Source: Bacteroidales bacterium (GTDB taxonomy: Bacteria > Bacteroidota > Bacteroidia > Bacteroidales > P3). Taken from it: 34,871 bases of DNA. The translations under genes and the position numbers were made by a program. The stretch is from NCBI GenBank assembly GCA_017960605.1, contig JAGCYV010000016.1:1-34871 (forward strand). Direction: 5' to 3'. Under the pieces are notes generated by a model, which searched no databases, was not told the DNA's origin, and worked only from the letters and a program-made list of their open reading frames with translations. Of the stretch, positions 12,122 through 25,861 are shown one piece after another (the first letter of the stretch is position 1; each line of letters starts with the position of its first letter).

Positions 12122-12129
12122 CAAAGATA
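12122..12129 (-). promoter_or_regulatory. -7 box for the DUF62 gene
   Basis: Minus-strand TATCTTTG (12129-12122) matches TAnnTTTG, 9 nt before the ATG at 12112. This implies a very short leader. No convincing -33 element was found at the usual distance. Confidence 0.5.
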
Positions 12130-12217: not shown

Positions 12218-12440
12218 GTAACACGCTGATACTAAGTCTTGAATCCGTTATGACCTAGTATTGACCTAGTATTGACCTAGTAATGACTATATAGAAAGTA
12301 CTAGGTCATTACCCGGTCACACCTTCATCATGCCCAAGTGTTTCTTTCATCATACTTGAACCATACTTGAGTCATACTTGAACCATACTTGAGTCATGCC
12401 TGAGGTATCATATTTAAGGAACACTTATGTTAGACTTAGG
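12218..12440 (+). repeat. Dispersed intergenic element, copy A, built on an 11-bp period
   Basis: In the 437-nt gap before sufC there is a tandem TGACCTAGTAT block (three units, 12251-12282). About 88 nt later, exactly in phase, comes a block of (A/G)(C/T)CATACTTGA units (12349-12403). The region between them keeps 11-bp spacing with degenerate units. The 88 nt at 12227-12314 match 25639-25726 with one difference. TACTAGGTCA (12299-12308) is the reverse complement of each of the three TGACCTAGTA units, so a hairpin can form, with CTATATAG in the loop. An 11-bp period breaks any reading frame every unit, and I see no coding sense. It ends about 40 nt before the sufC -7 box. Confidence 0.9.
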
Positions 12441-12481: not shown

Positions 12482-12489
12482 TATATTTG
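12482..12489 (+). promoter_or_regulatory. -7 box of the sufC-sufD-porE-like-msbA-like operon
   Basis: TATATTTG matches TAnnTTTG. The leader to the sufC ATG would be about 55 nt. No clean -33 TTTG lies 19-21 nt upstream (TTCG at 12461 is the nearest), so the promoter may need an activator or use the repeat just upstream. Confidence 0.5.
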
Positions 12490-25568: not shown

Positions 25569-25598
25569 CAAAGATACACAAAAAAACGGAACCTCCAA
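25569..25598 (-). promoter_or_regulatory. Promoter of the mutA-lptF/G-sufE-sufT-oppC unit
   Basis: On the minus strand TTTTG (TTG at 25598-25596), a 19-nt spacer and TATCTTTG (25576-25569) fit the -33/-7 consensus. The leader is about 30 nt, with no room for a B12 riboswitch. Confidence 0.75.
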
Positions 25599-25629: not shown

Positions 25630-25837
25630 GTAACCGCCTGATACTAAGTCTTGAATCCGTTATGACCTAGTATTGACCTAGTATTGACCTAGTATTGACT
25701 ATATAGAAAGTACTAGGTCATTACCCAGGTACGCTTTCATCATGCCCAGGTGTTTCTTTAGGCATACTTGAGTCGTACTTGAACCATACTTTGGTCATAC
25801 CTGAGGATTAACTTAAGGAACATTTAAGTTACTTAAG
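25630..25837 (+). repeat. Dispersed intergenic element, copy B, built on an 11-bp period
   Basis: This is a second copy of the element at 12218-12440, in the same orientation. The core 25639-25726 differs from copy A at one base. The three TGACCTAGTA units lie at 25663, 25674 and 25685, and the inverse TACTAGGTCA at 25711-25720. The second block (25761-25804) has three CATACTTGA-type units plus GTCATACCTGA, one unit fewer than copy A. GGATTAACTTA, AGGAACATTTA and AGTTACTTAAG continue the 11-bp step to 25837. It fills most of the 348-nt gap between mutA and the helicase gene and ends 17 nt before that gene's -7 box. Confidence 0.9.
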
Positions 25838-25853: not shown

Positions 25854-25861
25854 TATATTTG
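25854..25861 (+). promoter_or_regulatory. -7 box of the AddA-like gene
   Basis: TATATTTG, the same octamer as before sufC. It ends 18 nt before the ATG at 25880, implying a very short leader and ruling against the TTG at 25859 as start. No good -33 box is visible at normal spacing. Confidence 0.5.

What the first reader, a model, noticed from the sequence alone, without database searches (positions are those of the whole stretch)
12218..12440. Dispersed ~210-bp intergenic element with a continuous 11-bp period, present twice
Two copies (here and at 25630-25837) have the same orientation. The 88-bp core is identical at 87 of 88 positions, far more than expected for unlinked intergenic DNA 13 kb apart. 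Almost the whole element can be cut into 11-mers. TGACCTAGTA-type units and CATACTTGA-type units are in phase with each other (88 bp apart, 8 x 11) in both copies. An 11-bp step near the helical repeat puts each unit on the same face of DNA, pointing to a protein-binding array, an architectural site or a mobile non-coding repeat. It is not a CRISPR (no spacers) and not coding (11 is not a multiple of 3).
Basis: seen in the sequence. Interest (0 to 1): 0.8.

Follow-up and report, generated by a model that had tools for sequence, protein, structure and literature searches.

The report
Genus-wide 11-bp intergenic repeat arrays
The two copies belong to a large family of short DNA repeats between the genes of a little-studied bacterium, where spacer DNA is built again and again from 11-letter units whose spelling changes while their length does not; what this is for is unknown.

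Summary
Confirmed, and larger than reported. The copies match at 87 of 88 positions and the element tiles in 11-mers. The own genome holds 46 matching stretches, about 40 places; the near species Bacteroidales bacterium UBA3834 holds 57. 2 of 120 genomes searched in the genus, the own included, carry the unit dimer.

Anatomy: 33-bp leader, direct TGACCTAGTAT units, an inverted unit (quasi-palindrome), often a second array.

In 210 intergenic regions (50 kb), 61 arrays have period 11 and 8 have 22, against 0.4 and 0.15 in shuffles; none has 10, 12 or 13 (another mask gives 1, 2 and 0). 24 unit sequences differ by more than 2 of 11 bases without a common motif. Period-11/22 arrays occur in 15 of 30 sampled congeners and 0 of 21 genomes of other families.

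Orthologs differ by whole units, loci exchange sequence, and one array can stand where another stands in the sister species.

Best reading: a non-coding repeat class outside core promoters that grows and shrinks by 11-bp units. Protein binding and transposition are not shown. New variant of a known kind.

The parts
12218..12440 (+). element copy 1, between a SAM hydroxide adenosyltransferase gene (-) and an ABC ATPase gene (+; SufC-like by its SufBD-core neighbour)
12218..12250 (+). 33-bp leader GTAAC...CTGATACTAAG...TTA; conservation among 36 extracted copies begins near its 5' edge
12251..12283 (+). array 1: three TGACCTAGTAT/A units
12284..12294 (+). degenerate in-phase unit TGACTATATAG
12299..12308 (-). 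inverted unit TACTAGGTCA; in the right arm of the quasi-palindrome 12262-12319
12306..12349 (+). degenerate 11-mers in register linking the two arrays
12350..12404 (+). array 2: TCATACTTGAA/CCATACTTGAG units plus TCATGCCTGAG
12122..12129 (-). -7-like box (CAAANNTA on +) of the leftward gene
   Evidence: read; motif recalled
12482..12489 (+). -7-like box TATATTTG of the rightward gene
   Evidence: read; motif recalled
25630..25837 (+). element copy 2, between a methylmalonyl-CoA mutase gene (-) and a UvrD-type helicase gene (+)
25630..25662 (+). leader of copy 2
25663..25695 (+). array 1 of copy 2: three TGACCTAGTAT units
25711..25720 (-). inverted unit of copy 2
25763..25795 (+). array 2 of copy 2 (CATACTTGAGT-type, three units)
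25569..25576 (-). -7-like box (CAAANNTA on +) of the leftward gene
   Evidence: read; motif recalled
25854..25861 (+). -7-like box TATATTTG of the rightward gene
   Evidence: read; motif recalled

Best explanation
It is a dispersed, non-coding leader-array-hairpin repeat, one of many period-11 array families in the intergenic DNA of this Bacteroidales genus. SHOWN by sequence: about 40 places; a shared 33-bp leader, a direct 11-mer array, an inverted unit, then a variable tail; unit numbers differing in 11-bp steps between two species; a leader variant and a tail type exchanged between loci; one 11-mer array standing where another stands in the sister species; period kept while unit sequence differs. 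INFERRED: arrays grow and shrink by strand slippage or unequal recombination in whole units, helped by the hairpin. Copies and unit sequences spread by ectopic recombination or conversion through leader and array. Arrays persist because they mostly lie outside core promoters and transcribed leaders, where length changes do little harm. MOST SPECULATIVE: the unit is 11 bp because the expanding process prefers a step of about one helical turn.
For: 46 matches in G000, 57 in UBA3834. 61 arrays at period 11 and 8 at 22 in 210 intergenic regions against 0.4 and 0.15 in 20 shuffles. Ortholog differences of one or three whole units. Leader variant GAACTCC (three bases off GAATCCG) at 5 UBA3834 loci and 0 in the G000 stretches held; one of these, L066, has flanks 100% identical to window copy 2 over 595 bp on the left and 158 bp on the right, while copy 2 has the common form. 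L192 has a left flank matching one G000 element locus (L017, 87%) and a right flank matching another (L034, 93%), as expected from recombination through the element. Tail type replaced at L016/L067. Different arrays in the same intergenic region. Leader core also before three CTCCGT arrays of G000. 46 of 49 arrays lie upstream of the start-proximal -7-like box, against 0.75-0.76 for random positions.
Against: Slippage alone does not explain why 11 and not 10, 12 or 13. The position bias is modest and rests on a simple motif. Placement between divergent genes (20 of 41 array-bearing regions; 52 of 210 regions overall, 18.2 of 50 kb by length) could reflect function. The near-invariant hairpin core could mean selection as well as recent spread. 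No clean insertion into an empty site was seen. Of the indels of 5 bp or more in 38 well-aligned region pairs three are multiples of 11 (11, 11, 33) and four are not (5, 7, 7, 12); a 1-bp gap inside array 2 is seen at L019/L081. Leader-proximal units are clearly more uniform in G000 (33 of 36, 33 of 36, 21 of 32, 4 of 11 perfect for units 1-4) but units 1-3 do not differ in UBA3834 (17 of 23, 17 of 23, 13 of 18; then 1 of 4). The leader core was not found at 9 of 10 or better before other arrays of UBA3834 (0 of 21) or of congeners (0 of 25 other-type arrays).
Confidence: 0.55

Rival explanations
1. Helically phased protein-binding or architectural arrays: a nucleoid or regulatory protein coats DNA one turn at a time between promoters, recognising shape more than sequence.
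For: Strict period; 20 of 41 array-bearing regions lie between divergent genes; 46 of 49 arrays upstream of -7-like boxes; 4-mers CCTA, ACGG and CTAG are the top enriched among 51 pooled units of G000, UBA3834 and congeners.
Against: No common motif (18 G000 units: 5.53 bits against 5.45, sd 0.23, in 40 shuffles). Period 10 absent or nearly so. The same region carries unrelated arrays in sister species.
Confidence: 0.22
2. MITE-like element: leader and tail are the ends of a non-autonomous transposon moved in trans, with the arrays as internal cargo, comparable to BrickBuilt.
For: Sharp leader edge, dozens of dispersed copies, modular leader/array/tail with truncated tails. In copy 1 the RNA fold pairs 8 nt of the leader (12232-12239) with 8 nt at the right end (12432-12439).
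Against: In the four other copies tested none of the inverted repeats joins the ends; for copy 1 two of seven pairs were not displayed. Variable right end. The one Y1-transposase match is not flanked by the element; no reverse transcriptase match, in an assembly 78% complete. No empty site found.
Confidence: 0.17
3. RNA-level element: the direct array plus inverted units form a transcript hairpin; 11 bp is one turn of A-form RNA (recalled), so a dsRNA-binding or processing enzyme sets the period.
For: RNA fold z-score -3.9; inverted units also next to unrelated unit families, in congeners 11 of 22 arrays (8 places) against 3.6 in shuffles.
Against: In both window copies the element lies between outward-facing -7-like boxes, so neither gene's mRNA should contain it (read). 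37 other-type arrays of G000 and 17 of UBA3834 show no excess of inverted units (4 against 3.8; 0 against 1.4). No Rfam match there.
Confidence: 0.08
4. Local recent duplication of one intergenic region, or an assembly artefact.
For: The two copies are 13 kb apart; N runs at some UBA3834 copies suggest assembly trouble.
Against: About 40 places in one assembly and several orthologous places in an independent assembly.
Confidence: 0.01

Closest known systems
Long simple sequence repeats: heptamers of cyanobacteria and Xanthomonas, TAACTGA heptamers (PMC4692102 passages and discussion section; PMC4679880 abstract and Bacteroidetes section; PMC4060949 passages)
   Same: Intergenic tandem arrays of one unit length, with different unit sequences side by side in some genomes; place kept and length varying between close relatives; slippage of a preferred unit length has been proposed for heptamers.
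   Different: Unit length here is 11, with many unit families in one genome; a leader and an inverted unit in part of the families; often between divergent genes, where the Xanthomonas/Nostoc repeats are under-represented.
BrickBuilt minisatellite-bearing MITE of Porphyromonas gingivalis (PMC4596501, abstract and one section)
   Same: Leader, tandem units, tail; 19 intergenic copies with different unit numbers and partly missing leader or tail; narrow host range. Porphyromonas is a Bacteroidales genus (recalled).
   Different: One 23-nt unit and small inverted-repeat ends there; here 11-nt units of many families, no inverted-repeat ends conserved among five copies, and an inverted unit inside.
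REP/BIME elements with RAYT transposases (recalled)
   Same: Dispersed intergenic hairpin repeats.
   Different: The only Y1-transposase match is not flanked by copies; tandem 11-mers rather than a single short palindrome.
CRISPR arrays (recalled)
   Same: Leader followed by repeats; in G000 the best conserved units are next to the leader.
   Different: No spacers; units head to tail.

Membership tests
length-fixed intergenic long SSR / STRR | head-to-tail units of one length, over-represented in intergenic DNA | tested here: met
   61 arrays at 11 and 8 at 22; 0.4 and 0.15 in shuffles
length-fixed intergenic long SSR / STRR | several unit sequences of the same length | tested here: met
   24 units under 9/11 identity in the G000 sample
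length-fixed intergenic long SSR / STRR | unit number varies between close relatives | tested here: met
length-fixed intergenic long SSR / STRR | unit of 7 bp, as in the described heptamer families | tested here: not met
   unit is 11 bp; separate 7-bp arrays also occur
MITE / BrickBuilt | terminal inverted repeats | tested here: inconclusive
   none joining the ends in 4 of 5 copies; copy 1 has an 8-nt leader/right-end pair in its fold; right end ill-defined
MITE / BrickBuilt | target-site duplication or empty site | tested here: inconclusive
   no clean empty site in 50 region pairs; target duplications not scored
MITE / BrickBuilt | leader, tandem repeat and tail modules at dispersed intergenic sites | tested here: met
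REP/RAYT | RAYT gene flanked by copies | tested here: not met
CRISPR | unique spacers between repeats | tested here: not met
   units head to tail
sequence-specific protein-binding array | common motif across arrays | tested here: not met
sequence-specific protein-binding array | bound protein | not testable with these tools
   needs pulldown or footprint

The most novel reading that the evidence does not exclude
This genus has a dedicated process that writes intergenic DNA in 11-bp steps whatever the sequence: an array maker, leader-anchored in at least two families, whose units are exchanged and replaced while the 11-bp register and, in part of the families, a terminal inverted unit are kept. 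It would be an array system without spacers in which length, not sequence, is the inherited feature.
Probability: 0.2. Interest if true: 0.88.

Novelty: new variant of a known kind. Interest (0 to 1): 0.6.

Why it matters
Repeat families are usually defined by their sequence. Here the conserved property is the length of the unit: two dozen different 11-mers in a third of one genome, and others across the genus, with 10, 12 and 13 absent or rare. That asks a sharp, testable question (what sets 11?) in DNA usually ignored, offers a natural experiment on slippage and helical phase, and gives fast markers for a lineage seen here only as draft genomes.

Tried and rejected
Common binding motif by alignment of units over all rotations and strands: not above shuffles (likewise for UBA3834 and congeners). 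Units as descendants of one ancestor: only partly; with units collapsed at 10/11, G000 shows an excess of close neighbours (mean best identity 8.38 against 7.80, maximum 8.06 in 60 shuffles), but collapsed at 9/11 it stays within the shuffles (7.62; 7.50, maximum 7.83). REP/RAYT, reverse transcriptase and phage carriage: unsupported (no exact match in viral contigs for two patterns). Known RNA family: only three tRNAs in the window. Strand preference of the element in tandem gene pairs: 6 with and 3 against, too few. Clean empty sites: none in the pairs examined. The alignment output was cut in the middle and some locus pairs there ended at contig ends or N runs; I use only pairs printed in full. 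G035 holds GGTCAACGCTA units, 9/11 like GGTCAATACTA by eye; not followed. Literature: no paper on 11-bp arrays of this kind turned up in the searches, of which I saw listings and the parts named; this does not prove absence from print.

Full report
OBSERVATION. The copies at 12218-12440 and 25630-25837 share an 88-bp stretch identical at 87 positions, in the same orientation. Copy 1 matches itself at lags 11, 22 and 33 with identity 0.56, 0.53 and 0.40, and at 0.17-0.35 at the other lags from 5 to 34. It can be written as 11-mers from the first base: a 33-bp leader, TGACCTAGTAT units, TGACTATATAG, AAAGTACTAGG, TCATTACCCGG, TCACACCTTCA, TCATGCCCAAG, TGTTTCTTTCA, then TCATACTTGAR units. The linking part looks like a decayed array in the register of the second one. 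Among extracted arrays (two or more units required) an inverted unit ends within 60 bp in 29 of 36 in G000 and 18 of 23 in UBA3834, at the same offset in 27 and 16.

HOW MANY, WHERE. BLAST of the element against the own genome (1.91 Mb, 78 contigs, 78% complete) gives 46 matches, with 40 of 58 first-look candidates scored; some matches are parts of one place, so about 40 places. I fetched 38 stretches around them and printed 40 places with flanks. Conservation among 36 copies rises sharply about 33 bp before the array. Right ends differ: type A runs into the TCATACTTGAG array, type B into TAGTGTT-type repeats; for copies with the standard hairpin a simple classifier gives 14 A, 7 B, 1 other in G000 and 8, 6, 2 in UBA3834. 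Of 120 genomes searched in the genus two hold the dimer TGACCTAGTANTGACCTAGTA: G000 itself with 78 matches and G067 with 45. A pattern scan of the species-genome collection returned 19 stretches, all of Bacteroidales bacterium UBA3834; records of or near the own genome may be left out there. The UBA3834 genome, G061, has 57 BLAST matches; I take G061 and G067 to be the same, since contig lengths agree. The earlier BLAST of 36 other congeners and 24 genomes of other families gave one weak 31-bp hit, in a congener. Viral contigs: none.

THE LARGER PHENOMENON. I sampled 672 kb of the own genome: the window plus 40 stretches. The second set was taken from long contigs, most of them known to hold copies, so it is not blind. 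In 210 intergenic regions of at least 60 bp (50,005 bp) Tandem Repeats Finder gives 61 arrays of period 11 and 8 of period 22. Periods 7 (18), 8 (11), 16 (11) and 9 (5) follow; 10, 12 and 13 are absent. Twenty dinucleotide shuffles average 0.4 at 11. With another gene mask the same sample gives 53 at 11, 7 at 22, 1 at 10, 2 at 12 and 0 at 13 of 128 arrays. The less biased first set (275 kb with the window, which itself gives 3 of the arrays; run-based detector) gave 13 at period 11 among 27 arrays. With arrays masked, intergenic DNA still shows identity 0.292 at lag 11 against 0.276 and 0.275 at lags 10 and 12 (lag 8 reaches 0.294). The arrays have many spellings: 24 units below 9/11 identity in any rotation or strand, some of them from arrays of only two or three copies. 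No common motif beyond shuffles is found, though CCTA (13 of 51 pooled units, 4.35 expected, shuffle maximum 10), ACGG (10; 3.2; 9) and CTAG (7; 1.7; 7) are over-represented. In congeners 26 of 78 arrays have period 11 or 22, in 15 of 30 genomes, 21 of them sampled with 20-40 kb and the rest with less; period 7 has 14, and 10, 12 and 13 have 1, 1 and 4. In 21 genomes of other Bacteroidales families (257 kb, 30 kb intergenic; four gave no intergenic bases) 0 of 15 arrays have period 11 or 22 (Fisher p 0.009 against congeners and 0.0002 against G000; the control is small and arrays of one family are not independent).

SHARED ARCHITECTURE. A leader core like CTGATANTCAG, on which 17 of 18 TGACC arrays of G000 and 16 of 18 of UBA3834 score 8 or 9 of 10, also precedes arrays of the unrelated CTCCGT type at three loci of G000 (L178, L177, L219). 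In all, 6 of 42 other-type arrays of G000 score 9 or more (one of them beside a TGACC array), against 1 of 63 arrays of other periods and 1 of 500 random pairs; but 0 of 21 other-type arrays of UBA3834 and 0 of 25 of congeners do. So the shared leader is shown for G000 families only. An inverted unit at 9/11 or better within 70 bp is seen for 14 of 18 TGACC arrays and 5 of 5 CTCCGT arrays in G000 (1.2 and 1.2 in shuffled controls), 14 of 18 and 2 of 4 in UBA3834 (1.6 and 0.4), and 11 of 22 other-type arrays in congeners, which are 8 places (3.6 expected). It is not seen above chance for other-type arrays of G000 (4 of 37, 3.8 expected) or UBA3834 (0 of 17, 1.4 expected). So there are hairpin arrays and plain arrays.

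EVOLUTION. Orthologous copies differ by whole units: one unit at L021/L055, L024/L056 and L053/L069, three units at L020/L066; a 1-bp gap in array 2 is seen at L019/L081. Of 149 UBA3834 intergenic regions 50 could be paired with G000 regions; 49 were aligned and 38 were at least 75% identical; their indels of at least 5 bp are 5, 7, 7, 11, 11, 12 and 33, beside fifteen of 1 bp and three of 2 bp. Eleven of the 50 pairs have a period-11/22 call on at least one side; one of these is doubtful (its consensus has 10 letters). In two the arrays are unrelated although the flanking genes are about 89% identical. At a third site, outside this set, UBA3834 has a similar leader followed by a related CTACCCTAGTA-type array. 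A three-base leader variant (GAACTCC for GAATCCG) occurs at 5 loci in UBA3834 and 0 in the G000 stretches held. One of these, L066, has flanks 100% identical to window copy 2 (595 bp left, 158 bp right), which has the common form, so leader sequence was exchanged at an occupied site; the direction is not known. Two more match G000 element loci by the left flank only (L192 to L017, 87%; L088 to L026, 81%), and L192's right flank matches a different G000 element locus (L034, 93%), as expected from recombination through the element. Units 1 to 4 from the leader are perfect in 33 of 36, 33 of 36, 21 of 32 and 4 of 11 in G000; in UBA3834 17 of 23, 17 of 23, 13 of 18 and 1 of 4, so the polarity is clear in G000 only. 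I read this as whole-unit slippage plus ectopic exchange.

PLACEMENT. Of 41 array-bearing regions 20 are divergent, 15 tandem, 4 convergent and 2 at edges; all regions: 52 divergent, 137 tandem, 21 convergent; by length divergent regions make 36%. Regions with 7-, 8-, 14- or 16-bp arrays are mostly tandem (29 of 37). For 49 arrays with a usable TAnnTTTG box 46 lie upstream of the start-proximal box, against 0.75-0.76 for random positions in the same regions; for 7-, 8-, 14- and 16-bp arrays 11 of 13. Gene calls come from a simple codon-usage caller of my own. In the window both copies sit between outward-facing boxes; neighbours are housekeeping-type genes.

MECHANISM. I favour a non-coding repeat class that grows by 11-bp steps, with a stalled or folded replication intermediate at the inverted unit, and that spreads by recombination between copies. 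Dispersal, step size and exchange are shown; the replication step and the reason for 11 are inferred. The protein-coat and MITE rivals remain open.

KNOWN THINGS. Heptamer repeats of cyanobacteria, Xanthomonas and some Bacteroidetes are the nearest kind: length-fixed, intergenic, sequence-variable (passages and discussion of PMC4692102; abstract and one section of PMC4679880). PMC4692102 reports a hypothesis that heptamer excess reflects polymerase contacts; the same kind of argument could apply to 11. [quoted passage not shown] BrickBuilt (PMC4596501, abstract and one section) is the nearest element. I found no report of an 11-bp class like this one in the searches listed.

Noticed in passing
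L030, L033, L058, L060, L063, L072 downstream of type B copies: Several copies with the TAGTGTT-type tail precede paralogous secreted proteins (MKK..FLVS.L...); the one printed whole (L060) has a C-terminal end resembling a sorting signal (recalled). Gene-family duplication may have carried the element.
   Followed up: partly
L038, L042, L061: A second paralogous secreted family follows copies with the TCTACTATGTCA variant hairpin.
   Followed up: partly
G000 intergenic sample: Separate 7-bp (TAGTGTT-like) and 8-bp (GTTGATAN) array classes, mostly in tandem gene pairs, unlike the 11-bp arrays.
   Followed up: partly
L113-L114 (G002): In the k-mer distance count the strongest repeat distances of this congener are 26-27 and 52-53 bp, well above 11.
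   Followed up: no
L225:15227-15373: Compound locus: TGACCTAGTAT units beside TACCTTAGTGA/TACCCTAGTGT units, a possible snapshot of one unit turning into another.
   Followed up: no
L081, L082, L088, L091, L098, L192 (UBA3834): Runs of N stand in place of arrays in the UBA3834 assembly, and some contigs begin at copies, so array lengths there are uncertain.
   Followed up: no
L192 (UBA3834): Left flank of one G000 element locus and right flank of another meet at a copy, suggesting a rearrangement through the element.
   Followed up: partly
L249: The only Y1-transposase-like match of the genome lies beside unrelated interspersed repeats (CCCATCACAATGCTG...).
   Followed up: no
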